A DNA stretch of 64,000 nt from Verrucomicrobiota bacterium. Lineage in GTDB: Bacteria; Verrucomicrobiota; Verrucomicrobiia; Limisphaerales; PALSA-1396. Numbering within the stretch: the first letter of the stretch is position 1; each line of letters opens with the position of its first letter. A program made the translations under genes and the position numbers. The notes below the pieces were generated by a model. The model saw only the letters and a list, made by a program, of their open reading frames with translations. It did not search any database and was not told where the DNA came from. Positions 41,138 to 59,012 of the stretch are shown here, piece after piece. The DNA is taken from the NCBI GenBank assembly GCA_016200005.1, contig JACQFP010000053.1, forward strand, positions 1-64,000, in the 5' to 3' direction.

Positions 41138-41138
41138 T

Positions 41139-42320: not shown

Positions 42321-42322
42321 GT

Positions 42323-42337
42323 GAAGGAGATTCTTTG
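42323..42337 (+). promoter_or_regulatory. Shine-Dalgarno that fixes a TTG start for etfB
   Basis: AAGGAGA ends five bases before TTG 42335-42337. No ATG or GTG lies at the expected N-terminus (KILVPLKRVPD follows immediately), so the TTG is the start. Confidence 0.8.
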
Positions 42338-43090: not shown

Positions 43091-43091
43091 T

Positions 43092-44063
43092 ATGGCAAAG
43101 ATTCTCGTCCTAGCGGAACACGATGAGGGCCAGCTCAAGCTCGCCACGCTTTCGGCCATGGGCTTCGCGCACGAAGTTTGCGCCGATGCGGGCGGCTCGT
43201 ACGACGTCTTGATTTTAGGTGAAGGCATCTCCGCCGCCGTGGAATTGCTGCGGGGTTACGGCGCAGCTTCCGTGCTGGTTGCCGACCACGCCGCCCTTAA
43301 AGACCCGCTGGCCGACAAATACGCCCGCGTCATTGACGAAGTGGCGCGCGTGCAAAACGCCACGATGGTCGTGGGCGCAGCTTCGACGTTCAGCAAGGAC
43401 GTACTGCCGCGCGCGGCCGCGTTGTTGGATGCCGGCATGATCAGCGACGTAAATGACGTGCGCTCGGACGGCAACGATTTTATTTTCAAACGCATCATGT
43501 TCGCGGGCAACGTCATCGCCACCGTGAAACTGGACGGCGCTTTGAAGTTTTTGACCGTTCGCTCGGCGGCCTTCGCGCCGCCGCCCAAAGTAGCCGGGAC
43601 TTCGCCAATCACGTCAGTAGCCGTGGACGCCGGCAAACTGCCATCGCAAATCGAATATGTCGGACGCGAGGCAAAAGTCGCCGGTCGGCCCGATTCAACC
43701 GAAGCGCGGGTGGTCGTATCCGGCGGACGCGCAATCAAGAACGCCGAAGATTTCGAGCAACTGATCGGCGGCCTGGCCGACGTGCTCGGCGGCGCGGTGG
43801 GTTCATCCCGCGCACTCGTGGATTCCGGCATCACTCCGAATTCGTTGCAAGTCGGGCAAACGGGCAAGATCGTCGCCCCCGATTTATACATCGCCGTCGG
43901 CATCTCCGGCGCGATTCAACACATGGCGGGCATGAAGGACACCAAGGTCATTGTTGCCATCAATAAGGACGCGGAAGCGCCGATTTTCGAGATCGCTGAT
44001 TACGGTCTGGTCGGCGACGTGTATCAAATCGTGCCGGAGTTGATGGAGAAATTGAAAAAATAG
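43092..44063 (+). CDS. etfA: Electron transfer flavoprotein alpha subunit
   Basis: 323 residues. N-terminal domain (ILVLAEHDEGQLK, VVGAASTFSKDVLPR) and the FAD-binding C-terminal domain with GGAVGSSRALVDSG, VGQTGKIVAPDLYIAVGISGAIQH and VIVAINKDAEAPIFEIADYG, all canonical. It carries the redox-active FAD of the ETF dimer. Placed between etfB and the membrane Fe-S oxidoreductase, which is its probable electron acceptor. Confidence 0.94.
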   Translation: MAKILVLAEHDEGQLKLATLSAMGFAHEVCADAGGSYDVLILGEGISAAVELLRGYGAASVLVADHAALKDPLADKYARVIDEVARVQNATMVVGAASTFSKDVLPRAAALLDAGMISDVNDVRSDGNDFIFKRIMFAGNVIATVKLDGALKFLTVRSAAFAPPPKVAGTSPITSVAVDAGKLPSQIEYVGREAKVAGRPDSTEARVVVSGGRAIKNAEDFEQLIGGLADVLGGAVGSSRALVDSGITPNSLQVGQTGKIVAPDLYIAVGISGAIQHMAGMKDTKVIVAINKDAEAPIFEIADYGLVGDVYQIVPELMEKLKK

Positions 44064-44087
44064 TTTTATCCGGCTGGTTTCAAATCA

Positions 44088-46151
44088 ATGCAACCCACCC
44101 GCGAAACCTTCGGCAACATCCCGCATTCGTCGCAGATCATTTTCTATTGCCTGACGGTGGTGACGATGGCGGTGTTCGCCTTTGGAATCTGGCGGCGATT
44201 CAAGTTGTGGCGTCAGGGCACACCCATCGGCGTCAAAGAGCTGATCGTCGGCAACCTCAAACAAGTCTGGGCCAAAGTGCAGCCAGGAGTGCGGCGTTTA
44301 ATGGTGGAAGGGTTGGGACAAAAACGGGTGCGCGGTCGCGGCCTAGCAAGCTGGGCGCATATCATGCTCTTTGCCGGCTTTATGATGTTGTTTCTCGGCA
44401 CGACAATGCTGGAGATCGACCACCTGTCTTCGGGAATTTCGGAGGCACTGCATTTTCACAAGGGAACTTATTACGTCATTTATGAGTTCACCTTGGATGT
44501 CTTCGGTCTTTTGTTCCTGATCGGCTGCAGTTTGTTTTTGTGGCGGCGGACGCGGCGACCGTCGAGCGTCGGCCACAAGGCGACTGACTGGTATGTGCTC
44601 GGTTCGTTCATCGCCATTGGCGTCACCGGCTATCTGCTGGAAGGATTGCGCATGACCTGGCAGCACCCGACTGGCATTGCCGCGCAATGTTCACCGGTGG
44701 GACTGTTGATCGCGCAGTGGTTCTCCGGTCTGAGCGACAGCGCAGCGCGTTCGGCACACTTCACAGTCTGGTGGCTTCACGCTTTTCTCGTGTTCGGCTT
44801 CATCGCATCGATTCCCTACACGCGGCTGATGCATTTCATCACCGGTCCGATGAATCTTTTCCTCGCTCAACCCATGCTCGGCAAGCTCGTGCCGGTATCC
44901 ATGGAGGAAGTGGAGAAGACCGAACGCGTCGGCGTCAGCGCGGTTACCCACTTCAATCAACAACAACTCCTGAGTCTTGATGCCTGCATGGAATGTGGTC
45001 GTTGCGAAGATGCTTGTCCCGCCTTCGCCACGGACAAACCGCTGTCCCCGAAAAAGGTCGTTCAAGATTTGAAAGCGTTGATGACCCTGAATCTCACGCC
45101 TCACGCATCACCCACCACGCAGATTCAGCGCGCATTGCACGGCGACACCATTCAAGCCGAAACACTCTGGTCGTGCACGGCCTGCAGCGCGTGCGTGAAC
45201 GTCTGCCCGGTGCGGATCGATCCGCTCACGTTGATCACGGACATGCGCCGCAATCGCGTCGGCGAAGGCACGTTGAGCGGCACGGCGGCGACGGCGTTGC
45301 GCCGGATGCAATCCAGTTCCAATCCTTGGGGCTTGCCCGCCGCCGACCGCCCGAACTGGTCGGAGGGTTTGGGCGCGCCCACGGTCAAGGAGAATCCAAA
45401 TTTCGAAGTGCTATATTGGATCGGCTGCGCCGGGTCGTATGATCGCCGGGCGCAACGCGTCGCGCGCGCCGTGGTGAAACTGTTGAAGCACGCGAACCTC
45501 AACTTCGCCATCCTTGGCCGCGAAGAAAAATGCACCGGCGAATCCGCGCGCCGCCTCGGCGACGAGTTTTTGTTTCAGGAACTGGCCCAGGCCAACATCG
45601 CCACGCTGGCCAAATACAATGTTCGTAAAATCCTCGCGCACTGTCCACATTGCCTGAACAGCCTGCTCAAGGATTACTCGCAGTTCGGCGGACAATACGA
45701 GGTGATTCATCACACCCAGTTCATCTCCCAACTGATCAAGGATGGGCGATTGAAAATCCCCAGCCCCGCCGGTCAAAGCGACACCGGCGCGGTGACGTAT
45801 CACGACCCGTGCTATCTCGCCCGCGTCAACGGCATTCACGAGGCGCCACGCGAGGTTCTGAGGACGGCCTTGGGCGCGTCCTCCTCACCGCCTGACTTTC
45901 GCGAAATGCTGCGTAATCGGGAAAAGACCTTTTGCTGCGGCGCGGGTGGCGGGCGCATGTGGATGGAGGAAGACCCGAAGCAACGCATCTCCACGGTGCG
46001 CGCCAAGGAAGCCCTGGTCACCGGCGCCAAGACGGTTGCGGTCGGTTGTCCATTCTGCCTGACGATGGTCACCGACGGTGTGGCGGCTCAGGACAGTTCC
46101 GCGCGCGTGCTGGACGTGGCGGAAATTCTCGCGGAGAAACTGGGCGTCTGA
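44088..46151 (+). CDS. Membrane Fe-S ETF:quinone oxidoreductase (FadF/EMO type)
   Basis: 687 residues. N-terminal NarI-like cytochrome b membrane domain with about five to six helices (18-260, His residues in SWAHIMLFAG, DHLS, WWLHAF). Then two 4Fe-4S clusters: CMECGRCEDACPAF (Cys300, 303, 306, 310) and CTACSACVNVCPV. The C-terminal part has two CCG-type domains, marked by CAGSYDRRAQ, HCPHCLNSL, HDPCYLARVN and FCCGAGGGRMWMEE. This is the architecture of FadF/EMO proteins that move electrons from ETF to the menaquinone pool, in place of classical EtfD. The gene position directly after etfBA supports that role. Confidence 0.85.
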   Translation: MQPTRETFGNIPHSSQIIFYCLTVVTMAVFAFGIWRRFKLWRQGTPIGVKELIVGNLKQVWAKVQPGVRRLMVEGLGQKRVRGRGLASWAHIMLFAGFMMLFLGTTMLEIDHLSSGISEALHFHKGTYYVIYEFTLDVFGLLFLIGCSLFLWRRTRRPSSVGHKATDWYVLGSFIAIGVTGYLLEGLRMTWQHPTGIAAQCSPVGLLIAQWFSGLSDSAARSAHFTVWWLHAFLVFGFIASIPYTRLMHFITGPMNLFLAQPMLGKLVPVSMEEVEKTERVGVSAVTHFNQQQLLSLDACMECGRCEDACPAFATDKPLSPKKVVQDLKALMTLNLTPHASPTTQIQRALHGDTIQAETLWSCTACSACVNVCPVRIDPLTLITDMRRNRVGEGTLSGTAATALRRMQSSSNPWGLPAADRPNWSEGLGAPTVKENPNFEVLYWIGCAGSYDRRAQRVARAVVKLLKHANLNFAILGREEKCTGESARRLGDEFLFQELAQANIATLAKYNVRKILAHCPHCLNSLLKDYSQFGGQYEVIHHTQFISQLIKDGRLKIPSPAGQSDTGAVTYHDPCYLARVNGIHEAPREVLRTALGASSSPPDFREMLRNREKTFCCGAGGGRMWMEEDPKQRISTVRAKEALVTGAKTVAVGCPFCLTMVTDGVAAQDSSARVLDVAEILAEKLGV

Positions 46152-46224
46152 CGTTCCCACCGCTTGCATGAACTTTTGAATTCTGTTTCACTTAACCAAC
46201 ACTAAAACAAAACAAGAAAACATT

Positions 46225-48018
46225 ATGTCAGAACTAAAGAAATTGCCTCCTCACCTCATCGGCGGAAACTTTTTACTCACGGAAACCGACCCCAGCCTGG
46301 TTTTCACCCCGGAGGAATTGACGTCCGACCAACGCATGATGGCGCAGACAGCCGAGAAGTTTGTCGAAAAGGAGGTCATGCCGAACGTCGAAGCCCTGGA
46401 ACATCAACAGGACGGGATCGGCCCGGCGCTGTTCCGCAAGGCTTGCAAGCTCGGTTTGATCGGGATGGAAACCCCTGCCGAATTTGGCGGCCTCGGCCTC
46501 AATAAAGTCACCGGCATCGGCGTCTCGGAGCAACTCACGCGCCTCGGCGGGTTCGGCGTCACCTGCGGCGCGCACAGCGGCATCGGCACGCAACCACTCA
46601 TTTATTTTGGCAACGAAGCGCAAAAGAAAAAATATCTGCCCAAGCTCGCCAGCGGCGAATGGATCGCCGCCTACGCGCTTAGCGAAACCGGCTCCGGTTC
46701 GGACGCGCTCGGTATGAGGACCAAAGCCACGCTCACGCCCGACGGAAAACATTACGTCCTCAACGGCACCAAAATGTGGATCTCCAACGCCGGCTGGGCG
46801 GACTTGATCACGGTCTTCGCCAAGGTGGACGGCAAACTCGTCACGGCGTTCCTGGTGGAACGGACTTTCCCCGGCGTTTCCACCGGCAAGGAAGAACACA
46901 AACTCGGCATCAAGTCTTCCTCCACGCGCCGCGTCATTCTCGAAGACGTCAAAGTGCCGGTCGAAAATGTCTTGGGCGAGATCGGCAAGGGCGCCTACAT
47001 CGCGTTCAACATATTGAACCTTGGCCGCTTCGGCTTGGGCGCGGGTTGCATCGGCGGCTCCAAAGATTTGTTGAAGGTCGCTACCAAGTACGCTCTCGAA
47101 CGCCAACAGTTCGGTCGGCCCATCGCGTCGTTTGGTTTGATTCAACACAAGCTGGCGGAAATGGCCGTGCGGATTTTTGCCGGCGAAAGCACGACGTATC
47201 GCACCGCCGCCATGATCGACGCCGTGATGGCCACCGGCGAGATGATGGACTCCCCGGCCTTCGCGCGCGCGCTGGACGAGTTCGCGCTAGAATGCTCCAT
47301 CATCAAGATCGTATGCAGCGAGATTCTCGGCTACGCAGCGGATGAAACCCTGCAGGTTCACGGCGGTTACGGTTTCACCGAGGAATTTCCTGCCGCGCGC
47401 GGCTATCGCGACTCGCGTATCAACCGCATTTTCGAAGGCACGAACGAAATCAACCGGCTGTTCATCCCCGGCAACCTCATGCGCCGCGCGCAAAAGGGAC
47501 GCTTCCCGCTGATGGAAGCCGTCAAGAAAGTCAGCAAGGAAGTTCTCGACCTTTCGCCGTCACTCGATGCCGACGGCGACGAACTGGCCGCTGCGCAATC
47601 GCTCCTTGCCAACGCGAAGAAACTTGTGCTTCTGCTCGCCGGCATCGCCTACCAGAAATTCGGCGACAAGCTTATCGAAGAACAGGAAGTGCTGGCATGT
47701 CTCAGCGACATCATCAGCGACATTTACCTGGCCGAAAGCGCCCGACTGCGGACGTTGAAGGTGCGCAAGTCAAACGTCCGCCAGTCGATCATGGCCGACC
47801 TGACGCTCGTGTTCGTCAACGACGCCGTCGGGCGGATGGAAGCCTTGGCGCGTACGGCATTGACCGCCACGTCGGAAGGCGATGAATTGCGCGCGCAACT
47901 GGGAATCGCGAAACGACTGTTGCGCTGGCAACCACTCAACACCGTGGCGATGCGCCGCCGCATTGCCAAACGCTTGTGCGAAGTTGGCAATTATTCGGCG
48001 TTGGTTGCGGAGAAGTAA
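46225..48018 (+). CDS. fadE: Acyl-CoA dehydrogenase, long (VLCAD/ACAD9-like) form
   Basis: 597 residues: a core acyl-CoA dehydrogenase (about 30-430) plus a 160-residue helical C-terminal extension as in VLCAD/ACAD9-type enzymes. YALSETGSGSDALGM and GTKMWISNAG bind flavin and substrate; ALERQQFGRPIASFGLIQ; HGGYGFTEEFPAARGYRDSR; catalytic Glu404 in RIFEGTNEINR. It performs the first oxidation of beta-oxidation and hands electrons to the EtfAB encoded upstream. It closes the cluster. fadE is given by role, not by close identity with the E. coli gene. Confidence 0.88.
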   Translation: MSELKKLPPHLIGGNFLLTETDPSLVFTPEELTSDQRMMAQTAEKFVEKEVMPNVEALEHQQDGIGPALFRKACKLGLIGMETPAEFGGLGLNKVTGIGVSEQLTRLGGFGVTCGAHSGIGTQPLIYFGNEAQKKKYLPKLASGEWIAAYALSETGSGSDALGMRTKATLTPDGKHYVLNGTKMWISNAGWADLITVFAKVDGKLVTAFLVERTFPGVSTGKEEHKLGIKSSSTRRVILEDVKVPVENVLGEIGKGAYIAFNILNLGRFGLGAGCIGGSKDLLKVATKYALERQQFGRPIASFGLIQHKLAEMAVRIFAGESTTYRTAAMIDAVMATGEMMDSPAFARALDEFALECSIIKIVCSEILGYAADETLQVHGGYGFTEEFPAARGYRDSRINRIFEGTNEINRLFIPGNLMRRAQKGRFPLMEAVKKVSKEVLDLSPSLDADGDELAAAQSLLANAKKLVLLLAGIAYQKFGDKLIEEQEVLACLSDIISDIYLAESARLRTLKVRKSNVRQSIMADLTLVFVNDAVGRMEALARTALTATSEGDELRAQLGIAKRLLRWQPLNTVAMRRRIAKRLCEVGNYSALVAEK

Positions 48019-48409
48019 GTTGGGTAGGGACGCCGCGCTGCGGCGTCCAGTCGGCCTCAGAGCGATTACGGTATTGGTTTTAGCGACTCAGCCGAGGTTG
48101 GAGTTCAAGCTTCAGCTTGGCCGCACGCTAGTTCTTTAATCGGAGCAAGCTGAAGCTTGAACTCCAACGCCAAAGTCCTCGCAGCCGGACGGGATGCTGG
48201 CGGATAACAGCGCCACGCCTTCGCGGCTCGCGTGCTAATGCCCATCTTCCGCCCTCCGCCTTCTAACTTATGGCTTCTGTTTTGTGCTTCTCAGCCTTCT
48301 CCCTTTCCTCTCCGCCTCGACTGGGGAGAGGATAAAGGTGAGGTGTCGAAATCCCACGCGCCCTAAAAGTTCTTCCCAGTTTTCGCGCCCTGCGCTATCG
48401 TCGCCCGCG
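48019..48409. other. 391-base spacer with palindromes, junction to the accessory island
   Basis: The spacer holds the perfect 23-bp inverted repeat at 48097-48168 and a decayed CTCTCCCC-type element near 48297-48345 (CCTTCTCCCTTTCC ... GGGGAGAGGATAAAGG). No gene is visible. It separates the metabolic cluster from the DNA-modification island and could contain the island's promoter. Confidence 0.5.
48097..48168. repeat. Perfect 23-bp inverted repeat
   Basis: GTTGGAGTTCAAGCTTCAGCTTG (cited in parts: GTTGGAGTTCAAGC, TTCAGCTTG) at 48097-48119 is exactly mirrored at 48146-48168 around a 26-base loop. The arms are themselves semi-palindromic (AAGCTT). Same family as 28775-28845. Confidence 0.9.
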
Positions 48410-49225
48410 ATGGCATCCACGTCTTACCAGGAAATCAGAGATTCGTTGCGGCAACTTTACCTGGACGACCCACGCCCTTGGCTGGTCGGCTTCAGCGGCG
48501 GCAAGGACAGCACGATGGTTGCCTCAGTCATCGTCGAAACCATTGCGGGCATCCCCGACGGTCAGCGGAAGAAGCCGGTCGCCATTCTTTGCACCGACAC
48601 GCGCGTCGAGATTCCTGCCATCGCAGAGACGATCGAGAGCACACTTGCCAGGATCAACAAGTTCTCCCAGCAAGCTGCCCTCAATATCGAAGTCAACCTT
48701 CTCAAACCGCCCGCCGAACAATCCTTTTGGGTGAACATCATCGGGCGCGGGTACCCGCCGCCCAACCGAGTCTTTCGCTGGTGCACGCAGCGCCTCAAGA
48801 TTGATCCCGTCACCGTGTTTGTAAACCAGCGCATTGGGCACTGGGGCGAAGCCATCCTGCATCTCGGCGCGCGCCGCGCCGAAAGCTCCACCCGCGCACA
48901 GACGATGGCAAACCGCGACACGCGCGACGGCTTGAACCGTCACCCCGATCTCCCGCGCGTCTGGGTTTCCAACCCCATCGAATTCCTTACCACCGAGGAA
49001 GTCTGGGCTTATCTCCTCCAAAAACCGAACCCGTGGGGCGGCGACAACCGCCCGCTCTACAAACTCTACGCCAGCGCCTCCAACGGCGAATGTCCCATCC
49101 AGATTGACACCAGCACGCCCAGTTGCGGCAACTCCCGCTTCGGCTGCTGGACCTGCACCGTTGTCGAACGCGACAAAGCCGGCGAAGGCCTGCTGGCCCT
49201 TCGGAGTGAAACCATCTGGAACTAA
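48410..49225 (+). CDS. dndC: DndC-like DNA sulfurtransferase (PAPS-reductase fold), C-terminally short
   Basis: 271 residues; DndC proteins usually have about 450-550. The match is close where present: WLVGFSGGKDST (ATP-pyrophosphatase loop, 29-35), LCTDTRVEIPAI, EQSFWVNIIGRGYPPPN, FRWCTQRLKIDP, HWGEAILHLGARRAES, and STPSCGNSRFGCWTCTVV. DndC activates the DNA backbone and, with its Fe-S cluster Cys, helps place sulfur in phosphorothioate DNA. All four Cys expected for the cluster (one in WCTQR, three in CGNSRFGCWTC) remain. The frame ends 20 residues after the last, so the C-terminal half is missing. No dndB, dndD, dndE or cysteine desulfurase gene is adjacent. It could be a decayed gene or a compact variant; the next gene is four bases away. 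Confidence 0.75.
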   Translation: MASTSYQEIRDSLRQLYLDDPRPWLVGFSGGKDSTMVASVIVETIAGIPDGQRKKPVAILCTDTRVEIPAIAETIESTLARINKFSQQAALNIEVNLLKPPAEQSFWVNIIGRGYPPPNRVFRWCTQRLKIDPVTVFVNQRIGHWGEAILHLGARRAESSTRAQTMANRDTRDGLNRHPDLPRVWVSNPIEFLTTEEVWAYLLQKPNPWGGDNRPLYKLYASASNGECPIQIDTSTPSCGNSRFGCWTCTVVERDKAGEGLLALRSETIWN

Positions 49226-49229
49226 AGCG

Positions 49230-50381
49230 ATGAACTACTGGCTCGATTTGTTTACCGGCGCAACTTGGGACGAGTTTCAGAAAGCTGGTGCGAATGTCTC
49301 AGGTTTTCGCCCGCGCATGCGAAACGCCGCAAAGAATGTTAAGCCGGGAGACATTCTTCTCTGCTACCTCACCGGAGTAATGCGCTGGGTCGGAGCATTG
49401 GAGGTTGTCGGGTTAAGCAGGGACGACCGTCCGATCTGGAAGGACGTTGATTTCCCGGTACGGTTCGATGTTAAGCCGCTGGTCGTTCTACAGCCGGAGA
49501 ATGGCATCCCGATGAGCGAACTCGAAGGCCGGGTCAATTTTTACCGAAGCGCGAAAGACCGTGGCAAGTTCAGAGGTTTCGTCCGGATGAGTCCAAATCG
49601 TTTTGGAGTGGAAAAGGACGGAGCATTGGTCTTGGATCTTCTGAGGCAGGCGCAATCTTCACCGATTGCGCGTCCCGTTGACCCGAAAAAACTGGCCTAC
49701 CGGCCCAAGTTGTTCAAGGCCGAGCAACGGAAAGGTAAGCGGACAGTTTCCGTTGTTGTCAGCGTTCCCGAGCCAGAAGAGACACAACTTGAGATTCCCG
49801 ATGAACAAGTGTCGGAGTCTCAAGAAATTTCCGCCGTCAGCAAGCACACCGAGATTCAATACAACCTTTTGAGTCTCGGTGCTGACATGGGCAACGACGT
49901 TTGGGTGGCGCGCAACGACCGCTCCAGACAATGGCAAGATCAGGTGCTCGGCGAAATGCCTCGAATGGTGGCAGAGCTTCCGACACAATTCAACGAAGTC
50001 ACGAACAAGACAATCGAGTTGATTGATGTTCTGTGGCTGAAGGGGAACTCCATTGTGGCTGCGTTCGAGGTCGAAAGCACTACGAAGATTTACTCTGGCC
50101 TGCTGCGAATGAGCGACTTGTTGGCCTTGCAGCCCAATCTGGAAATCAATCTCTTCCTCGTTGCGCCAGATGAGCGGCGTGACAAGGTCGAGCAAGAAAT
50201 TTTGCGCCCCACTTTCGCGTTGCGGGAAAAACCTTTGGCCAAGGTCTGCGGTTTCATCGCCTTCTCGACGTTGCTGGATAAACTTCAGGGCATCAGACGG
50301 CTGAATCTCGCAGCCTCGCTAAAGCCGGATTTCCTTCAGAAGATCGCAGAGTATTTTGAGACGGACGAAGCTGCTGTATGA
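49230..50381 (+). CDS. EVE-domain protein fused to a PD-(D/E)xK-like nuclease
   Basis: 383 residues from ATG 49230, four bases after the DndC-like stop. An N-terminal EVE domain (about 1-105: YWLDLFTG, NVKPGDILLCYLTGV, WVGALEV) belongs to the PUA superfamily that reads modified bases. A charged linker (150-205) leads to a nuclease-like domain (about 225-345) with VWVARNDRSRQW, LIDVLWLKG and AAFEVESTTKIYSGLLRM. Asp266 with Glu280 and Glu282 fits a D-ExE variant of the restriction fold. Architecture suggests a modification-dependent nuclease. The DNA looks less GC-rich than the upstream gene, hinting at transfer. Confidence 0.7.
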   Translation: MNYWLDLFTGATWDEFQKAGANVSGFRPRMRNAAKNVKPGDILLCYLTGVMRWVGALEVVGLSRDDRPIWKDVDFPVRFDVKPLVVLQPENGIPMSELEGRVNFYRSAKDRGKFRGFVRMSPNRFGVEKDGALVLDLLRQAQSSPIARPVDPKKLAYRPKLFKAEQRKGKRTVSVVVSVPEPEETQLEIPDEQVSESQEISAVSKHTEIQYNLLSLGADMGNDVWVARNDRSRQWQDQVLGEMPRMVAELPTQFNEVTNKTIELIDVLWLKGNSIVAAFEVESTTKIYSGLLRMSDLLALQPNLEINLFLVAPDERRDKVEQEILRPTFALREKPLAKVCGFIAFSTLLDKLQGIRRLNLAASLKPDFLQKIAEYFETDEAAV

Positions 50382-50445
50382 ACGCGCTGACGCAATTCGA
50401 CGAGCAGGCAGTCAAGCGTTGAACCGTGTTTACAGTTTGAGCGAT

Positions 50446-51612
50446 ATGAGCAAATCAACTAAAACTTCAGACGTGAAAAAGAAATTGGGCAAGCCGAGCC
50501 TCAAGCCTCGCGAGGTGACCGAGAAACCAGTGGGCAAGTTGGTATTCGACACCCTCAATCCACGGTTGCCGTCGTATCTGAATAAGGGAAGCGAGACTGA
50601 TGTGATTCAGTGGATGCTCGACGAAGCGAATATCGTCGAGTTGATGGGAGCGATTGGAGAGCAGGGGTATTTCGAGGGAGAGCCACTCATCGTCGTCGAG
50701 ACCAAAGCAAACAAAGGCGTGTTCGAGGTTGTGGAGGGCAACCGACGCCTAGCAGCTGTGAAACTCCTCAGTCATCCTGAACTCGCCCCAACACACAAGA
50801 ACGCCGTCGCGACTGCAAGTGCCCAAGCGAAGCACAAACCAACCGATATTCCTGTACTGGTTTTCGATGAACGCAGTGAAGTATTGCGTTACTTGGCGTA
50901 CCGGCACATCACAGGCGTTGAACAGTGGAATCCTCTTCAGAAAGCGCGCTATCTGAAGCAGCTTGCGAATGAGCCTGACTTCAAGAAGCTTGGCAAGGAT
51001 GAGTTGCGCCAGCGGTTGGCGAAAGAGATCGGAAGCAACGCCAACTACGTCGCACGGTTGTTGGCTGGCCTTGCGGTCTATGCCAAAATTGCTGATCAGG
51101 GATTCTTCAAGATTCCGGGACTCGATGAGCGAACGATCTCATACTCGGTGCTCACGACGGCTTTGACGTATTCGAGTCTGGCCCGACACATCGGGTTGGA
51201 CAGCCCTACGGATGACGATGCCGCGAAGATTAAGTTAAAGGGGCTGGAGGAGCTTGCCAAATGGGTCTTTGAGGAAAACACGGAAGGGTTTACCCGTGTC
51301 GGCGAATCACGCGGGCTCAAAAAACTTGCGCGCATTGTCGAAACGGACAAGGCGCTGCAGAAGTTCCGGGATGGACGCAGTCTTGACGAGGCTTTCGCCT
51401 TTACCACCGGCCCGGCCGAAGCATTTCGCGATGCTCTTCGCCAGGGCAAGTCGCAGTTGGAAATCGCTCGCGACACCGTGCATCTCATCGACAATCACCA
51501 ACAGGAAGACGCAGACCTTCTTAAGGAAATCCAGCGAATTACCAGACTCGTCTCAGGTCACGTCGAGGACAGCTTGGCGAATTCTACGAAGAAGAGCACC
51601 GACGCCAAGTAG
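50446..51612 (+). CDS. ParB/sulfiredoxin-fold protein in a DNA-modification island
   Basis: 388 residues from ATG 50446, 64 bases after the nuclease gene. A basic leader (KSTKTSDVKKKLGKPSLKP) precedes a ParB-like nuclease domain (about 20-140) with the hallmark VEGNRRLAAVKLL (Glu97-Arg101), the phosphate/nucleotide motif of the ParB/Srx fold. A helical middle (150-250) resembles the ParB helix-turn-helix region (KEIGSNANYVARLLAG), and a long helical tail follows. It is not a chromosome-partition ParB: no parA is adjacent. ParB/Srx proteins occur in DNA-modification conflict systems as CTP/ATP-binding switches. The exact activity is unknown. Confidence 0.7.
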   Translation: MSKSTKTSDVKKKLGKPSLKPREVTEKPVGKLVFDTLNPRLPSYLNKGSETDVIQWMLDEANIVELMGAIGEQGYFEGEPLIVVETKANKGVFEVVEGNRRLAAVKLLSHPELAPTHKNAVATASAQAKHKPTDIPVLVFDERSEVLRYLAYRHITGVEQWNPLQKARYLKQLANEPDFKKLGKDELRQRLAKEIGSNANYVARLLAGLAVYAKIADQGFFKIPGLDERTISYSVLTTALTYSSLARHIGLDSPTDDDAAKIKLKGLEELAKWVFEENTEGFTRVGESRGLKKLARIVETDKALQKFRDGRSLDEAFAFTTGPAEAFRDALRQGKSQLEIARDTVHLIDNHQQEDADLLKEIQRITRLVSGHVEDSLANSTKKSTDAK

Positions 51613-51618
51613 CCCGCC

Positions 51619-52590
51619 ATGACATACTCCCTGCCGAAGCATACCGCGTTTGACCAGCACCATTGGGCTGATTGGGTCGAACTATTGTGCCTTGCTGACC
51701 CCGATGGCGAAATGTCAGCTAGTCGCGTTATCCAACAAGCAGGGCAGCGCAACAAGGATTTGGGGGAGGCGCAGGAGGTCGATGATCTTGACGACGTTTC
51801 CGACGCGGAATTGGACAAGGCGGAGCTTGGCGACAAGTGGCGGGAACGGGTTGACGAGTGGTTCGGTCACTTGCATTTCCGTGCAAAGCATTTCGGCGAT
51901 AGTTATCCTTTTGAAGTGAAGGGCGGCCCTTCCTTGCTGAAAAAGCGGGCGGAGCTGACCGAACGCCACAAGCTCTACGTGGCCTTGCTCATGGCATCGA
52001 ATCTAGGCTACTTCAACGCCTACCAATCTGACCTGACCGCCAGTTTTGAGTTGCTATGTTTGGAGGTATTCAGATCGTGGTTGCCCGAACGCGCCCAAGT
52101 ACATTTGTTTGGGAGCAATAAGCTGAACGAAGGAATTTTCTCAGGCCATCTCTTGGCGAAGATTGGCAAACTCGCTGAACACTTGAACGAACACATTCAC
52201 CCGGATATCAGCGAAGACTCGTTTGCGCCAGAGGACGCTGGCGACAATGGACTTGACCTCGCGGCATGGATACCGGTGGGTGACTCTTCGCCGGGCACGG
52301 TGATTTTCTTTGGCCAATGCGCCTGCACCACAGAATGGGTTCGGAAACAGGATTCGTCAGCTTACGAGGCATGGAGCAGCGTGATCACGCTTGCGTCCCG
52401 TCCACTGAATGTCGTGTTCATCCCGTTTTGCCTCAGGTCGGCTTCCGGTTCGTGGCATTCGCCTCAGGATCAACACCGACATGTTCTTATGGATCGCTCA
52501 CGCGTCATGCACTTCTTGGAGGACAAGGTTAAAGACCTGCTTGGCTTGCCGGCTTTCAAGGCAGTGGACGAATGCTTGGCCAATGGATGA
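51619..52590 (+). CDS. Putative restriction-endonuclease-like island protein
   Basis: 323 residues, six bases after the ParB-like gene. No signal. The N-terminal part is acidic and helical (HHWADWVELLCLADPDG, EAQEVDDLDDVSDAELDK). The C-terminal half has NEGIFSGHLLAKIGKLAEHL and GDNGLDLAAWIPVGDSSPG, followed by VIFFGQCACTTEW. Asp213 in GLDLAAW and Gln233 in FFGQCA fit motif II and the (E/Q)x(K) strand of a PD-(D/E)xK fold, as in LFGQCK-type proteins, but the Lys position is Ala235. It may be inactive, use another Lys, or be a sensor. I do not recognise a named family. Confidence 0.55.
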   Translation: MTYSLPKHTAFDQHHWADWVELLCLADPDGEMSASRVIQQAGQRNKDLGEAQEVDDLDDVSDAELDKAELGDKWRERVDEWFGHLHFRAKHFGDSYPFEVKGGPSLLKKRAELTERHKLYVALLMASNLGYFNAYQSDLTASFELLCLEVFRSWLPERAQVHLFGSNKLNEGIFSGHLLAKIGKLAEHLNEHIHPDISEDSFAPEDAGDNGLDLAAWIPVGDSSPGTVIFFGQCACTTEWVRKQDSSAYEAWSSVITLASRPLNVVFIPFCLRSASGSWHSPQDQHRHVLMDRSRVMHFLEDKVKDLLGLPAFKAVDECLANG

Positions 52591-52602
52591 TCTTGATTGC
52601 GT

Positions 52603-53583
52603 ATGAAAGTCCAACTCACAGCGGTGTCATTGTTCTCGGGCTGCGGAGGATTCGATTACGGTGCAGTCCAAGCCGGGGTGAGGATCATTTGGGCGAATGA
52701 CAACGATCCCTACGCCGCCTCAGCTTACAAGTCCATCTTGCCGGATATTCCATTCACGCAAGGCGACATACGGGACATCGAGGATTTCCCGAGAGCTGAC
52801 ATTCTAATCGGCTGCTACCCTTGCACCGGTTTCAGCGAGGCTGCTCGCCGCCGTCCGAAGGACTTCAGCAAGCGCGATCTCCGCGCGAATCCGGGCAATT
52901 ACCTTTACCGAGAGTTCCTTCGCGCATTGAGGCAAGTCAAACCGAAGTTCTTGTTTGTGGAAAACGTGAAGGGCATGCTGACAGCTGAGCAGGGATGGTT
53001 TTTCGAGAGACAGTTGGATGGATTTCGGCGACACGGCTTTCGCGTTCAGTTCAAACTCCTGAATGCTGCCCATTACGGCGTCGCTCAGGAGCGACGGCGA
53101 ATTTTCATCGTTGGGGTACATGAGGACGTCACGAACTTTGAGTACGAATTCCCCAAACCTACCCACGGGCCTGATACGAGTACTCCATTCACGGTACTGC
53201 GTGACGCCATCGGCGATTTGGTTGCGAAACCAGATGACGACCATTGCCGGAAGAAATTTCACGGACACTACCTGACGAGAAACCGAAAACGAAATTGGGA
53301 TGAGCTTAGTTACACGGTCGTTGCCCATGCCGGCCATGTGCCGCTGCATCCCGATGGGCGGCCGATGAAACGAACCGGCAAAGACCGTTACGTGCTCCAA
53401 GGCAAAACCAACCGCAGGCTCAGTTGGCGGCAATGTGCTGCGATCCAAGGCCTGCCGGATCAGATCGCTGTTGATGGCGGAATCTTCGCCAAGTACCGGG
53501 TGGTGGGCAATGCCGTTCCGCCACCTTTGGCGAGAGCGTTGTTGATGCCGGTCGTCAAAGGCTGGCAGAAGTTAAAACGGTAG
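52603..53583 (+). CDS. dcm: DNA (cytosine-5) methyltransferase
   Basis: 326 residues from ATG 52603; TTG 52597 is possible. It transfers methyl from SAM to C5 of cytosine in a specific duplex. All main motifs are present: SLFSGCGGFDYGAVQAG (I), GCYPCTGFSEAARR with nucleophile Cys74 (IV; PCT where most have PCQ or PCP), FLFVENVKGM (VI), QERRRIFIVGVH (VIII), WRQCAAIQGLPD (IX) and VVGNAVPPPLARAL (X). The target-recognition region between VIII and IX is short. It lies 12 bases after the nuclease-like gene and converges with vsr, overlapping its stop region by 12 bases. The pairing with Vsr argues for true 5-methylcytosine production. Confidence 0.92.
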   Translation: MKVQLTAVSLFSGCGGFDYGAVQAGVRIIWANDNDPYAASAYKSILPDIPFTQGDIRDIEDFPRADILIGCYPCTGFSEAARRRPKDFSKRDLRANPGNYLYREFLRALRQVKPKFLFVENVKGMLTAEQGWFFERQLDGFRRHGFRVQFKLLNAAHYGVAQERRRIFIVGVHEDVTNFEYEFPKPTHGPDTSTPFTVLRDAIGDLVAKPDDDHCRKKFHGHYLTRNRKRNWDELSYTVVAHAGHVPLHPDGRPMKRTGKDRYVLQGKTNRRLSWRQCAAIQGLPDQIAVDGGIFAKYRVVGNAVPPPLARALLMPVVKGWQKLKR

Positions 53584-53997
53584 CCTTGCCGTTTTCAGCA
53601 AGGCTCTCTTGACCCGACTGAGTACCTGCTGTGGCTGACTTAACTCATGTGCCCAGACACGAACCACACGCCAGCCAGAGGTTCTCAGGCTTCGGTTGAT
53701 TTGTCGGTCGCGTAGGCGGTTGCGGGCCAACTTCGCCATCCAATACCTGCGATTGGTCTTCGGCTGATGTCCATGCGTCGGACACCCATGCCAAAAACAT
53801 CCGTCAACAAAAACTGCAAGGCGCCGTTCCCGGAATACGAAATCAGGCTTGCCGGTAACCTTGACATGCCTCCGCCAACCTCTGATGCCGTGCTTTCGGA
53901 ATAACGCAGCCAGTTTGATTTCCGTGTCCTTGTTGCCGGTCGCGCGAATAGCCGCCATGATCTGCGACCTTTTACGTTTGGAGAAAGCGTCAGCCAC
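53572..53997 (-). CDS. vsr: Very-short-patch mismatch endonuclease Vsr
   Basis: 141 residues from GTG 53997 (ADAFSKRKRSQIMAAIRATGNKDTE), typical Vsr length. It nicks 5' of T in T:G mismatches that arise when 5-methylcytosine deaminates. Motifs: GKPDFVF with the catalytic Asp, FVDGCFWHGCP with zinc Cys/His and the catalytic His pair, and GWRVVRVWAHEL. It is encoded opposite to dcm and overlaps its 3' end by 12 bases. The longer upstream frame is rejected because it lacks family similarity. Confidence 0.92.
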   Translation of the reverse strand: MADAFSKRKRSQIMAAIRATGNKDTEIKLAALFRKHGIRGWRRHVKVTGKPDFVFRERRLAVFVDGCFWHGCPTHGHQPKTNRRYWMAKLARNRLRDRQINRSLRTSGWRVVRVWAHELSQPQQVLSRVKRALLKTARLPF

Positions 53998-54069
53998 GAT
54001 CCCAGCATAATGCAAAGAGCTCGTGACAGCGATGCACGCGTTTCCAATTCGACGCCGTGACCTGAACAA

Positions 54070-54316
54070 TCAGAAAGCGGCGGGCGGAATCCTGCTCACG
54101 CTGGAAAAGCCCACCAAACCCATGCGCGACGAAGCCGTGGACGCGGGCGGTTACGAGTCGAAGCTCTGGCACGACAAGGATTATCCAAAAATCCAACTGC
54201 TTACGATTGAGGGTTTGTTGAGCGGCACCGAGCGCGTGGACGCGCCGCCGCAAATGAATCCCTTTGCCAAAGCGCAACGCGAAGCCAAGCCGGAGAAGCA
54301 GACGGAGTTGATTTAG
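54070..54316 (+). pseudogene. 3' remnant of a site-specific DNA methylase gene
   Basis: About 80 codons ending in TAG carry GGILLTLEKPTKPMRDEAVDAG, DKDYPKIQLLTIEGLL and NPFAKAQREA, which is the C-terminal tail of N4/N6-type site-specific DNA methylases (short motifs quoted: LLTLEKPTKPM, IQLLTIEGLL). Catalytic motifs (DPPY/SPPY, FxGxG) are gone; upstream sequence turns into the vsr 5' region. It is the leftover of a truncated methylase gene, perhaps cut when the dcm-vsr block arrived. Confidence 0.65.
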
Positions 54317-55255: not shown

Positions 55256-55379
55256 TCCGCCTCGATTTCAGACAGAGATCGTACTCCGTCTCATTCAAAA
55301 TTCCGACAATGAATTTGGCGGACGGTCATCCGCAAAACCAGCGCCCTAGGTGCTGGCGGAATGTCACGTCTTTGAGTCC

Positions 55380-58300
55380 CTAAAAATTCAGCCGGAGACG
55401 CACCATGAGCGTTCGTTCGCGCGGCAGTTCGTTGTAAACGTTGAGCGGATTGAGACGGTAATCCTGATCGGTGATGTTGAGCAAACCGAGCGCCACCTCG
55501 GCTTTCCGACGCGGAAAGCGATAACCAGCAAATGCGTTGAATTGCCAGAAGTCATCGCCCGGCTCTTTCGGCGTGTAGCCCTGGTTCTCCTGGGTATACC
55601 AGCGGGCTTCGCCTTCACCGAAGAATCCGCAGGGATGATTGAAGATCGCGAACAAACTTAAGTGGTGCATAACGCCCTCCAGGCGTTGTCTTGGCTGGAA
55701 ATTGCCAAAGATAAGACCGTCGGGCACGTCCACGAAGTTGTCCCTAAGAACCGCCTGACTGATGCGATAACGCGCGCCGAACGACCATTCCGCATCCACC
55801 AATTGGTTGGCCGTAAACAGCAGTGATTGCTCCTGATAATCCAAGTGCTCGCGAAGGCCGGAGGGAATGGCGAAATCCAACTGATCCGGAAGCACGTCGA
55901 AAGTCCCGACCGCTCGACGGACTTCGGAATTCAGCAGTTCACCGGAAACGCCCAGGTAAGTTCCGGTGGAGAATTTCTGCTCTAGCGAAATCCCGTAGGT
56001 TTCAAATCTCGCGCCGACATTGGCTCCCGCCACAGATTCAGGAATGATGCTCCGGAACGATTGGACAAAACCCGCCACCTGCGAAGGCTCGAGTTGGTAG
56101 CTCTGATCCAGGCTGGCGCCCGCCAGGGATCGCGCATAAGCAAAACGCGCGACCGTGTTTGGCACGGGTCTCCAAATCAGGCCAGCCTTGGGCGAAACCT
56201 GATCACTGGTTTTTTCACCCGCCGAAATGGGCGCAGTCCGAAAATTTTCAGGGAAGGTCATTCGGTCGTAGGTCAATCCCCCAATCATTTCCAACCAGTC
56301 GGTGATCTCCCACTGATGATAGCCGTAAAAACTGATGCGCCGGAAGAGCGAAGTAATGTCCTGTTGCGCTGCCGGAGCCGGAGGATCTGGAAAAAGAGCG
56401 CCGTAAGTGGAGGGCAGGTTTTGGAGATTGGCCGTTTCAAAATGACCATACTGAACGCGCGCGCCGAAAATGGTATTATGTGAGGGCTGCTGCCAGATTT
56501 GTTGCAGCTCTGCCGAATAAATCTCCAGCTTGTTGACAAGATTCTCATGCATCGTGATGCCCTGCACGCCGGTCAATGCTGTGACGCCGGGCGCAACGTC
56601 CGGCCTAAACGCAACGAGGGTCGGCTGTGCCTGGTTGGTAAACGAATCAGTATCGTCGAGGCGGGTTGCGAAGAAAAAGGTGTGAACACCGGGACTCCAT
56701 TCGTGGTGATAGCCAAGGGCAACAATCGGCTCGTGTGTTTCATTATAGCGGAAGGTAGGACTCGCCATAGTGGGACGATAGTACTGGGCCAGGTCCCCGC
56801 CTTCTGCCTCAAAGTGTTCAGCCCGCAAATAAACACTGTCCTGTGGCGAGAGTTCTTGCTTCATCGTCAAAGCGAGTTGCCGCTCGATGATGTCATTATT
56901 CAGCCGCTGGCCGGGGTCGGAACGATAGAATGCTTCCAGACTGTAGTTCAAGTTCTCGAAAGTTCCGTACTGTGCGCCGGATTGCCTCCACGCGCCTCGA
57001 CTTAGGTATTCCGTGCTTGAAACGACCCCGAAACGATCCCGTTCAAACAACCGGGAATATTCATGCTGCGAGATAGCAGGTGTAAGCGCGCCCGCGCTCA
57101 CCGGGGCGAGCAAATCGGCCAGCAGATATTCGTTCAAAGCGGCAGTCTCATAACGAAGGTTGACCAAGTTCGGATCGCGAACAGCGTTGTAGCTGTTGGC
57201 CAAAAAAAGGTGCGCGGAATAGTTTCCATAATCATGGTTCACCGCGCGGGATGCTTCGCGCACGGCGACATCGGACATGCCGGCGTCGTGATACATTGCC
57301 GCAAGATTGGCGCCGCGCACGGCCTGGTCCTGGTCCAGCAAAAGTTGCGAGCGATAGACGCTGCGGTTGTCGTTCAATTCCGCCGACTTTTCCAGGTCAC
57401 GAATCGCTTCGTTGATCCGGTTGTTCTGCTGATTGAGCAGGGCCGAATAAAGCCACGCAGTTGGGTCGTTCGGGTCCAGGTGTTTCGCGAGTTCAAGTTC
57501 CTTTGTGGCGCGAGGGGAATCGCCCGCGTTGGCGTAAGCCTTGCTTAAATAACTTCGCAACACAGCACGCTGGGGCTCGAGCGCCGCCGCCACCAACAAA
57601 TCTTCGCGTCCGCCCGCTGCGTCGCCAAGACGGATACGGCACAGCCCCCGGCCGAGCCAGGCATTGCCGAGAGCGCCATCCACGGCGAGTGCGCGATCGA
57701 ACCAGAAGATAGCCTCGCGAGTCTTGTTTTGCGCCGCGAGCAGGAAGCCCTTCAAAGCGAGTGCTTCGGCGTTACGGGGCGTGAGTCCGAGGCTTTTGTT
57801 CAAGGCGTCCAGCGCGCTTTCCGTGTGGCCGAAACTAAACTCCAGTTCCGCGACGCGTTCCCAAGCGAAGCCAAAATCTGGCGAGATGGTCACGGCCTGT
57901 TTTGCCAGATTCAACGCGCGTTCCAGCGAAATTTCGCGCACAGCGCGGGATTGTTCATGGTAGGAATTCGCAAGGAATTCCGTGGCCAGTTCCGGATTGA
58001 CGATGGAGGGACTCGTCTGACGCTTCACCGCGGCGATGAGTTGGCGCAAAGCGGTGGCGAGCCGCTGAGGGCGCGCAGAGGCATCGACAACAGACAGCGA
58101 AGACAGCGCCGCTTCAGCGTCCTCGACTTGTCCGACACCAAGGAGCAGCGCCGCGTAATAGACACGTTCGGCGTCGGAGTCAGGCTGGCGCGTGGCCGGA
58201 TATTTCGCCAGCGCCGCCAATAAATCACCCGCACGATATGCATCAATGGATTCGGCAAGGATTCTTTGCTCGTCGGACGTGAGTGGCAGTTCCGCCAGAT

Positions 58301-59012
58301 CGAGCACCGCAGGATAGTAAAAGCACCATTGAAGGACGTTGTTGGCGATAAAACCCGCTGTACGAGCTGGCGCTTGGCCCAATTCCGCAACAGCCTGCTG
58401 GCCATTTGTGAGGACGAGTGTGGCCGGCTCGTTGCCAAACTGAATTCTGCCATCGATCACGGACAAAGTTGTAAATTCCGTGGCATTCGTGGCAGTGATC
58501 GCCATGACGAACTCGGTGCCCTCCACGCCCGCAACCGCGCCGCGCGTAATCACGCGGATGCGCCCCGGCGTGTCGCGATGGAAAAAGGAAATAATCCCCC
58601 GGACCAGGTGCAGGCCGAATTGTGCCTCGCGCGAGTGCGGCGGGAGAATTTCGAGTTCCGTCGAAGCGCCGAAAGGCAGGATACTTTGATCCGACCAACG
58701 AAGTGCGCCCCGGCTGTTCACCCCGGAGCGCAATCGGTCGAATGGGTGCAATACTTGGTTGGTTTGCGTGAGCACCCAGGTCGTGGCACCGGCGGGGGAG
58801 ATTTCCACCGCTCCCTGGAGTTCCGCGATTCGGATTTCATTTTTGACCGCACGGACTGTTGCGGACTGCGCGCAGGACATCTCGGCCCAAGTTGCAAGAC
58901 ATCCCAAAATTGCAGCCAAGACAATCTTCCGACCGCCTGTGGGAAATGGGTTCAATCGTTGTTTCGTAGCGCGTGTTGCACCATGTTTAGGTGAAAAGTT
59001 GTCGCCGATCAA
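55380..59012 (-). CDS. FecR-TPR-outer-membrane beta-barrel fusion protein
   Basis: 1210 residues. The start is TTG 59012, because an in-frame stop lies just upstream and no ATG precedes the signal peptide (VLAAILGCLATWAEMSCA). Order: FecR domain (about 55-215: GALRWSDQSILPFG, IISFFHRDTPGRIRVIT, GAVAGVEGTEFV); about ten TPR-like helical pairs (250-620: FAWERVAELEFSFGHTESAL, AWLGRGLCRIRLGDA, AWLYSALLNQQNN); then a TonB-receptor-like barrel (650-1210) with alternating aromatic strands and terminal Phe (MVRLRLNF). No plug domain is evident. FecR normally links outer-membrane receptors to ECF sigma factors; here receptor and FecR lie in one chain, divergent from an ECF sigma gene 105 bases away. 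Confidence 0.78.
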   Translation of the reverse strand: MIGDNFSPKHGATRATKQRLNPFPTGGRKIVLAAILGCLATWAEMSCAQSATVRAVKNEIRIAELQGAVEISPAGATTWVLTQTNQVLHPFDRLRSGVNSRGALRWSDQSILPFGASTELEILPPHSREAQFGLHLVRGIISFFHRDTPGRIRVITRGAVAGVEGTEFVMAITATNATEFTTLSVIDGRIQFGNEPATLVLTNGQQAVAELGQAPARTAGFIANNVLQWCFYYPAVLDLAELPLTSDEQRILAESIDAYRAGDLLAALAKYPATRQPDSDAERVYYAALLLGVGQVEDAEAALSSLSVVDASARPQRLATALRQLIAAVKRQTSPSIVNPELATEFLANSYHEQSRAVREISLERALNLAKQAVTISPDFGFAWERVAELEFSFGHTESALDALNKSLGLTPRNAEALALKGFLLAAQNKTREAIFWFDRALAVDGALGNAWLGRGLCRIRLGDAAGGREDLLVAAALEPQRAVLRSYLSKAYANAGDSPRATKELELAKHLDPNDPTAWLYSALLNQQNNRINEAIRDLEKSAELNDNRSVYRSQLLLDQDQAVRGANLAAMYHDAGMSDVAVREASRAVNHDYGNYSAHLFLANSYNAVRDPNLVNLRYETAALNEYLLADLLAPVSAGALTPAISQHEYSRLFERDRFGVVSSTEYLSRGAWRQSGAQYGTFENLNYSLEAFYRSDPGQRLNNDIIERQLALTMKQELSPQDSVYLRAEHFEAEGGDLAQYYRPTMASPTFRYNETHEPIVALGYHHEWSPGVHTFFFATRLDDTDSFTNQAQPTLVAFRPDVAPGVTALTGVQGITMHENLVNKLEIYSAELQQIWQQPSHNTIFGARVQYGHFETANLQNLPSTYGALFPDPPAPAAQQDITSLFRRISFYGYHQWEITDWLEMIGGLTYDRMTFPENFRTAPISAGEKTSDQVSPKAGLIWRPVPNTVARFAYARSLAGASLDQSYQLEPSQVAGFVQSFRSIIPESVAGANVGARFETYGISLEQKFSTGTYLGVSGELLNSEVRRAVGTFDVLPDQLDFAIPSGLREHLDYQEQSLLFTANQLVDAEWSFGARYRISQAVLRDNFVDVPDGLIFGNFQPRQRLEGVMHHLSLFAIFNHPCGFFGEGEARWYTQENQGYTPKEPGDDFWQFNAFAGYRFPRRKAEVALGLLNITDQDYRLNPLNVYNELPRERTLMVRLRLNF

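What the first reader, a model, noticed from the sequence alone, without database searches (positions are those of the whole stretch)
48410..53997. Compact five-gene island pairing a DndC-like sulfurtransferase with ParB/Srx, EVE-nuclease and Dcm, plus Vsr
Seen: five co-directional genes with gaps of 4, 64, 6 and 12 bases encode a DndC-like protein, an EVE/PD-(D/E)xK-like protein, a ParB/sulfiredoxin-fold protein, a nuclease-like protein and a C5 methyltransferase, followed by convergent vsr. Known: DndC acts in phosphorothioate DNA modification, EVE domains read modified bases, and ParB/Srx proteins occur in modification systems. Inference: one modification-sensing/restriction unit combining sulfur chemistry and cytosine methylation, without dndB/D/E. 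I know of no described system with this set, but I could not search.
Basis: partly seen in the sequence, partly recalled or inferred. Interest (0 to 1): 0.78.

Follow-up and report, generated by a model that had tools for sequence, protein, structure and literature searches.

The report
Restriction-like cassette beside broken dndC
The block is an uncharacterised bacterial defence-like cassette, a DNA methylase plus a ParB-like protein and a nuclease-like partner that also occurs in many viral contigs and some temperate phages, and it sits next to a broken leftover of a sulfur-modification gene instead of forming one system with it.

Summary
The one-system reading fails. DndC is a 5' stump: homology stops near codon 265, while 30 of 34 close relatives read to 426-443 aa; no dndD match in the genome. 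The EVE-nuclease has no homolog in any other cassette locus examined. ParB-P4-Dcm is real: P4 directly follows ParB in 16 of 16 assessable cellular/plasmid loci and 78 of 80 viral-contig loci (two end at ParB); 73 of the 80 also carry a Dcm like the window's, one with convergent Vsr. Coliphage Wphi has the cassette. ParB and P4 distances correlate at 0.95, Dcm with either at about 0.35: a fixed pair with an exchangeable methylase (Dcm or D12; twice beside dndBCDE). P4 has no Pfam, NCBIfam or PADLOC match; its model is a winged helix plus an MspJI/Mrr-like nuclease fold (modest scores) with an apparently migrated lysine. Best reading: a two-subunit, NTP-gated restriction unit blocked by its methylase, with Vsr and an added EVE-nuclease, lying between a dndC stump and a methylase stump. 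New variant of a known kind; testable in E. coli W.

The parts
48410..49225 (+). 3'-truncated dndC (271 aa; intact relatives 426-443), keeps PP-loop and Cys motif; stump, judged not part of the cassette
49230..50381 (+). EVE-like domain fused to a type II REase-like C-terminal domain; probably an added nuclease gene
50446..51612 (+). ParB-like protein (phrog_3694) with EGNRR box
51619..52590 (+). P4: winged helix + MspJI/Mrr-like nuclease-fold protein (phrog_3984)
52603..53583 (+). C5 cytosine methylase, partner of the ParB-P4 pair
53572..53997 (-). vsr, very-short-patch mismatch endonuclease, GTG start
   Evidence: same arrangement in viral contig L188
54032..54316 (+). 3' stump of a 543-aa N6/N4 methylase

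Best explanation
The functional unit is ParB (50446-51612) + P4 (51619-52590) + Dcm (52603-53583), with Vsr as repair partner. Proposed mechanism: Dcm marks host DNA with 5-methylcytosine at its sites; the ParB-like protein binds NTP and DNA through its EGNRR fold and acts as a gate or clamp; it recruits or licenses P4, a winged-helix plus Mrr/MspJI-type nuclease, which cuts DNA lacking the mark; Vsr repairs T:G mismatches left by 5mC deamination. Shown here: conserved pairing and order, co-inheritance of ParB and P4, exchangeable methylase, nuclease-like fold and active-site-like residues of P4. Inferred: NTP gating, cleavage, methylation block, anti-phage activity. The dndC stump is debris at the insertion point; the EVE-nuclease is an extra gene that probably came along.
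For: P4 directly after ParB in 16 of 16 assessable cellular/plasmid loci and 78 of 80 viral-contig loci, the other two contigs ending at ParB. A P0005-like Dcm lies next to the pair in 73 of 80; L188 repeats ParB-P4-Dcm with convergent Vsr. Mantel ParB-P4 r 0.95, ParB-Dcm 0.34, P4-Dcm 0.35, 0 of 2000 permutations as high, n=55. P4 model pLDDT 90.6; best PDB match MspJI (Foldseek E 6e-4; Z 8.4 over 139 aa). D213 in 67 of 67; lysine in QCK (6) or at W+3 (56), none with both. In a P2-like phage the cassette is next to the portal gene, where PMC9519451 places a defence hotspot (passages). Against DndC membership.
Against: No activity is shown for any member in anything I saw. The MspJI match is modest (TM about 0.3; Z 8.4 where unmatched models typically reach 7-8). 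Five of 67 P4 proteins have neither lysine by the strict rule (L146, L159, L188, L211, L234; in three of them a K follows another residue at the like place, by eye); L188 and L146 may be inactive. Position 144 is E in only 51 of 67. Viral loci were chosen by ParB motifs, and only the best 80 of 137 were kept, so that set is not an unbiased sample. The window's co-directional Dcm is the minority layout (4 of 73). Two cellular cassettes show no methylase nearby (L107, L144). The MspJI group is modification-dependent (PMC3874153 passages), which would argue for the opposite polarity.
Confidence: 0.55

Rival explanations
1. R-M plus abortive infection: ParB-P4 is a suicide effector held off by intact methylation, as suggested for PD-lambda-5, and as in operons of a methylase, a ParB nuclease and a HEPN protein, with P4 in the place of HEPN.
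For: ParB N-domain matches PD-Lambda-5_A at 8e-25 and the methylase of locus L096 matches PD-Lambda-5_B at 6e-107; PMC9519451 says PD-lambda-5 appears to be a compacted prophage version of an RM+Abi system (passage); PMC3710099 lists a HEPN family in operon with a ParB nuclease and DNA methylase (passage).
Against: P4 resembles a DNA nuclease and not HEPN; the ParB match covers only about the first third of PD-Lambda-5_A.
Confidence: 0.22
2. The EVE-nuclease, not ParB-P4, is the restriction partner of this Dcm and Vsr, and ParB-P4 does something else.
For: Relatives of its C-terminal domain lie directly beside a C5 methylase in L256 and L257 (one genome), within 2 kb of a C5 methylase and a Vsr in L255, and beside a type I methylase in L252; its GC3 agrees with the rest of the island.
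Against: None of the 73 viral and 5 cellular ParB-P4-Dcm cassettes has it; L253, L254 and 4 plasmid relatives show no methylase beside it (the plasmid gene table is incomplete).
Confidence: 0.1
3. One sulfur-plus-methyl system, with DndC, EVE-nuclease, ParB, P4 and Dcm acting together.
For: Gap of 4 bases between dndC and the EVE gene; the DndC core shows no clear relaxation (dN 0.10, dS 1.16 against L018; 1 unusual change in 144 invariant columns); two ParB-P4 pairs lie beside dndBCDE.
Against: C-terminal third missing; no dndD match in the genome; no co-occurrence elsewhere; GC3 0.761 for dndC against 0.60-0.64 for the other five island genes.
Confidence: 0.04
4. Methylase and Vsr are an orphan pair and ParB-P4 is an unrelated phage function, for example partition or anti-restriction.
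For: Dcm distances follow ParB/P4 only weakly (r about 0.35); two cellular loci without a methylase.
Against: A Dcm beside the pair in 73 of 80 viral loci and modification genes beside 13 of 16 cellular/plasmid pairs; P4 nuclease-like fold.
Confidence: 0.07

Closest known systems
PADLOC candidate PDC-M38A (715-aa model)
   Same: The ParB protein matches it almost end to end (L188 residues 2-366 to positions 2-360, E 1e-20; window 60-381 to 58-371, E 5e-15).
   Different: The model is twice as long; its second half matched none of the P4 proteins scanned. No paper with the name was found.
PD-lambda-5 (PMC9519451; PADLOC PD-Lambda-5_A/_B)
   Same: Methylase next to a protein with the same N-terminal ParB-like domain; described there as prophage-borne; L096 has a methylase of the _B family.
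   Different: Window methylase is C5 and not D12; ParB matches only positions ~9-159 of the 440-aa _A profile; the nuclease-like partner is a separate gene that no PADLOC model matches.
Methylase-ParB-HEPN (MAE_28990) operons (PMC3710099, table row seen)
   Same: DNA methylase and ParB nuclease genes beside a third effector gene.
   Different: Third protein is winged-helix MspJI/Mrr-like here and not HEPN; relation of the two ParB families not tested.
MspJI/Mrr-type nucleases (PMC3874153, passages)
   Same: Nuclease-domain fold; the QCK form fits (D/E)..(D/E/Q)XK; N-terminal winged helix as proposed for Mrr.
   Different: No SRA-like domain seen in the model matches, constant ParB partner, carried with a methylase; lysine moved in most members.
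Dnd phosphorothioation (PMC10853773, passages)
   Same: dndC stump; two other ParB-P4 pairs border dndBCDE.
   Different: No dndD match in this genome, DndC truncated.
Type II R-M with Vsr (recalled)
   Same: Dcm with Vsr; restriction-like partner.
   Different: Two-subunit ParB-P4 in place of one cognate REase.

Membership tests
PD-lambda-5 | D12-type adenine methylase (_B) | tested here: not met
   Window methylase is C5; a _B match was found only in relatives such as L096
PD-lambda-5 | Full-length _A protein | tested here: not met
   P0003 aligns over ~150 positions of the 440-position best profile
PDC-M38A candidate | 715-aa protein matched over its whole length | tested here: not met
   ParB matches the first half only; P4 has no match
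Dnd phosphorothioation | Full-length DndC | tested here: not met
   Stops at 271 aa; profile position 266 of 447
Dnd phosphorothioation | DndD in the genome | tested here: not met
   TIGR03185: no match in the 96% complete genome; sub-cut-off matches rang in 9 of 14 controls, none above cut-off
Dnd phosphorothioation | DndE in the genome | tested here: inconclusive
   No match, but no control genome rang
Restriction-modification | DNA methylase | tested here: met
   Pfam DNA_methylase 8e-61, near full length
Restriction-modification | Endonuclease component linked to the methylase | tested here: inconclusive
   Fold, motif and linkage support it; activity untested
Restriction-modification | Cleavage blocked by the cognate modification | not testable with these tools
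   needs experiment
MspJI/Mrr-type nuclease | Nuclease-domain fold | tested here: inconclusive
   MspJI ranks first of 500 chains aligned, Z 8.4 over 139 aa, AspBHI 7.1, but scores are close to the usual background
MspJI/Mrr-type nuclease | (D/E)..(D/E/Q)XK with K on the strand | tested here: not met
   Window reads QCA with K243 at W+3; 6 of 67 members read QCK
ParB/Srx NTPase fold | Conserved Box II-type arginine motif | tested here: met
   E97 G98 N99 R100 R101 L102 invariant in 17 of 17 (one viral member, L157, reads EGNCRL); NTP binding untested
Type IV EVE-nuclease | EVE domain fused to a PD-(D/E)XK domain | tested here: inconclusive
   EVE below Pfam cut-off, PRK00809 3.5e-7; C-terminus REase_II 1e-14

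The most novel reading that the evidence does not exclude
A new restriction architecture in which a ParB-type NTP-switch clamp, in place of a helicase or translocase, delivers an Mrr/MspJI-like nuclease to unmarked DNA, and the same ParB-nuclease pair is plugged onto different marks: 5mC, adenine methylation and, in two dnd-linked loci, phosphorothioate.
Probability: 0.28. Interest if true: 0.78.

Novelty: new variant of a known kind. Interest (0 to 1): 0.52.

Why it matters
ParB-like proteins occur beside modification systems without a clear job. Here is a compact, recurrent pair (ParB + nuclease-fold P4) whose methylase is swapped while the pair stays fixed. A version is in coliphage Wphi and has a DNA match in 139 of 5426 complete E. 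coli genomes (at least 80% of the cassette in 103). That makes the question whether a ParB clamp can run a restriction enzyme directly testable in a laboratory strain. It would also give a function to two families now listed as unknown (phrog_3694, phrog_3984), and it removes a false lead, a sulfur-plus-methyl hybrid.

Tried and rejected
DndC as a selected mini-sulfurtransferase: not excluded. The window copy and its sister L018 (97/88 support) are both 3'-truncated and look constrained, but breakpoints and following genes differ; L018 has an N6/N4 methylase and a second ORF between the stump and an HNH gene, and a homolog of that HNH gene directly follows dndC in 12 of 31 relatives whose dndC 3' end is intact, which favours separate insertions. 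EVE-nuclease as cognate REase of the Dcm: kept as a rival; on recheck its C-terminal relatives were found nearer to methylases than I first wrote (adjacent C5 in L256 and L257, C5 and Vsr within 2 kb in L255, type I in L252; none seen in L253, L254), so I moved some confidence to it. No other of the 11 phylum genomes with a hit (387 searched, own included) matched the window's EVE half; all matches start at residue 170 or later. L254's N-terminus looks EVE-like by eye, but Pfam gave nothing. Viral-contig scans with P4 alignment A1 and with P0002 found no relatives. P4 against PDB sequences: best E 0.35; P0002 and P0001: nothing at E 0.1 and 0.001. The first P4 model, from 2 sequences, was poor (pLDDT 45.9) and not used. 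BFVD gave nothing at E 0.001 (best 2.9e-3, a phage 'restriction endonuclease').

Rows dropped: one of five P4 matches (G179; no P4 ORF there; absent); two of 11 matches (L150, L151: no P4 ORF); L141 (contig starts at P4, so the upstream gene cannot be seen). L147 has P4 in two ORFs; it was counted as paired but left out of the P4 alignment A3.

Literature: ten searches (CC-licensed PMC papers only, no preprints); I saw the listings, and passages of eight papers: PMC10853773, PMC9519451, PMC12839542, PMC12704722, PMC3710099, PMC7641849, PMC3091744, PMC3874153. None of what I saw describes ParB + P4 + methylase. Most listed papers were not opened. From recall: what Vsr does, PP-loop and ParB clamp biology.
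Full report
Observation. The window block 48410-53997 holds the five co-directional ORFs and convergent vsr as described, with gaps of 4, 64, 6 and 12 bases. It lies on a 204-kb contig of a 6.5-Mb, 96% complete genome.

The DndC-like gene is a stump. P0001 matches DndC models strongly but only to position 266 of 447 (TIGR03183) or 279 of 505 (NF005316). Of 34 relatives at 60% identity or more, 30 read through to 426-443 aa, one starts at a contig edge with an intact 3' end (L049), and three are broken (L018, L038, L045). Window homology ends at 'EGLLA', followed by eight unrelated residues and a stop. P0001 has one match in the genome, itself, and no dndD match was found; the DndE search was negative but its control was silent. 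Among 80 DndC loci, 62 have a dndD match, 1 has the ParB-P4 pair, none has the EVE-nuclease, this Dcm or this Vsr (tblastn E 1e-5). The stump still looks constrained: dN 0.10 and dS 1.16 against L018, and one change in 144 columns invariant in 11 intact relatives, where single intact relatives show 1 to 6. The truncation is therefore young, or the short form still does something. L018 is its sister (97/88) and is also cut near the same codon; there an N6/N4 methylase and a second ORF lie between the stump and an HNH gene. A homolog of that HNH gene directly follows dndC in 12 of 31 relatives with an intact 3' end, so in L018 foreign genes seem to have replaced the 3' part of dndC.

Surroundings. 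The same-genus genome G001 is collinear with the window from 39238 to 48019 and then departs; the right flank 55362-59001 lies on another contig of G001. Between vsr and the right flank, 54032-54316 is the 3' end of a 543-aa methylase intact in G001. So the island lies between a 5' stump and a 3' stump. GC3 is 0.761 in dndC and 0.756 in the left-flank gene, 0.60-0.64 in the EVE-nuclease, ParB, P4, Dcm and vsr, and 0.716 in the methylase stump; a right-flank gene at 0.637 shows that this is only moderate evidence.

The real unit. A profile of P4 found it in 4 of 387 genomes of the window's phylum, window included, in 3 of 369 of the class of L058, L058's own genome included, and in 9 of 395 of another phylum (11 matches, 2 decayed). 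Two plasmid records of 72,556 have a match. In 16 of 16 assessable cellular or plasmid loci a ParB-like gene lies directly upstream. Modification genes beside the 16 pairs: Dcm in L129, L146, L147, L148, L149; D12 methylase in L096, L128, L142, L143, L145; other methylases in L099; dndBCDE in L058 and L097 (the latter also with PbeA and PbeC); L108 has a Z1/DUF4420 set with a cytosine methylase several kb away; none seen in L107 and L144. A scan of viral contigs (IMG/VR) with the ParB alignment gave 137 relatives, of which the best 80 were kept. Of these 80, 78 have P4 next (the other two contigs end at ParB), 73 have a Dcm homologous to the window's (69 convergent, 4 co-directional as in the window), 2 have a D12 methylase, 3 show the pair alone (two of these contigs end near P4), none has DndC or the EVE-nuclease, and L188 has ParB-P4-Dcm with convergent Vsr like the window. 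Coliphage Wphi (gp98, gp96, mth), vB_EcoM-12474III and vB_PaeM-D14A carry it. The Wphi cassette has a match in 139 of 5426 complete E. coli genomes, over 80% or more of its length in 103. In 12474III it lies beside the portal gene; PMC9519451 describes a P2 defence hotspot adjacent to the portal gene (passages).

Fixed pair, exchangeable methylase. Over 55 cassettes (78 dereplicated) the ParB and P4 distance matrices correlate at 0.95, ParB-Dcm at 0.34 and P4-Dcm at 0.35, 0 of 2000 permutations reaching these. Part of this reflects common descent of the carriers, which the permutation does not remove.

P4. No Pfam, NCBIfam or PADLOC match; it matches phrog_3984, function unknown, as ParB matches phrog_3694. 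With 52 sequences the model reaches pLDDT 90.6 and pTM 0.91. Foldseek ranks MspJI first (E 6e-4, TM 0.30); VIA-align gives MspJI Z 8.4 over 139 residues of the C-terminal part, AspBHI 7.1, BspD6I and FokI 7.8-6.2; residues ~5-125 align with winged-helix proteins. These scores are modest. D213 is invariant in 67 of 67 and an acid stands at 209 in all; 144 is E in 51. Six members read QCK; none of these has lysine at W+3. Of 61 others, 56 have lysine at W+3; none has both; five have neither by the strict rule. The QCK members whose partner is visible go with D12 methylases (L096, L128, L142, L233, L235; L141 is cut), though L143 and L145 have D12 and no QCK. I read this as a catalytic lysine that has migrated within a PD-(D/E)XK-type site; that is inference.

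EVE-nuclease. Its relatives (174 plasmid records; 11 of 387 phylum genomes, own included) match mainly the C-terminal domain. Of six genome loci examined, L256 and L257 (one genome) have it beside a C5 methylase, L255 within 2 kb of a C5 methylase and a Vsr, L252 beside a type I methylase; L253 and L254 show none. Four plasmid loci show none in an incomplete gene table. EVE-PD(D/E)XK fusions are discussed as putative type IV enzymes in PMC7641849 (passage). I take it as an extra gene that arrived with the island, but it could be a second restriction partner of the Dcm.

How it probably works. Dcm marks, Vsr repairs the cost of 5mC, ParB gates, P4 cuts. Polarity (cutting unmarked DNA) is inferred from linkage to a methylase: an enzyme that cut the mark would be suicidal. 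An Abi-like suicide role is the main rival.

Novelty. The pieces are known folds; the fixed ParB + winged-helix/MspJI-like pair with swappable modification was not described in the listings and passages I saw. It resembles, but does not meet the definition of, PD-lambda-5; the PADLOC candidate PDC-M38A matches the ParB protein nearly end to end, so a relative may already be on a candidate list without a description that I could find.

Noticed in passing
L058:269-7414; L097:3887-15854: ParB-P4 pairs lie convergent to dndBCDE (with a HerA-domain 1599-aa protein in L058 and PbeA/PbeC in L097), a possible phosphorothioate-linked version.
   Followed up: partly
L018:206-3915: Sister dndC is also 3'-truncated and followed by an N6/N4 methylase and another ORF, then the HNH gene native to this clade; the 3' part of dndC may be a repeated landing point for R-M genes.
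   Followed up: partly
L019, L020, L022, L023, L024, L026, L030, L033, L034, L039, L048, L049: In these 12 of 31 relatives dndC is directly followed by a homolog of the L018 HNH protein.
   Followed up: partly
window 48281-48350; L038:10735-10779: A short G+C-rich repeat-like sequence upstream of the window dndC recurs inside the decayed dndC of L038.
   Followed up: partly
G001 contigs C273, C225, C281, C211, C278, C14: The methylase 3' end seen at 54032-54316 recurs at several places in the same-genus genome, mostly as short fragments.
   Followed up: partly
L169:9047-11188: A viral-contig P4 gene is split in two pieces about 900 bases apart.
   Followed up: no
L007:1501-1602 (G001:C475): A much reduced dndC relic (first ~34 codons match) in the same-genus genome.
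   Followed up: partly
L142:9420-12039: A second ParB-like protein and a gene with a weak match to phosphorothioated-DNA restriction endonucleases (below cut-off) lie next to the cassette.
   Followed up: no
window 52603-53583: Best PADLOC match of the Dcm is the Druantia-type DruM2 methylase family (1e-89).
   Followed up: no
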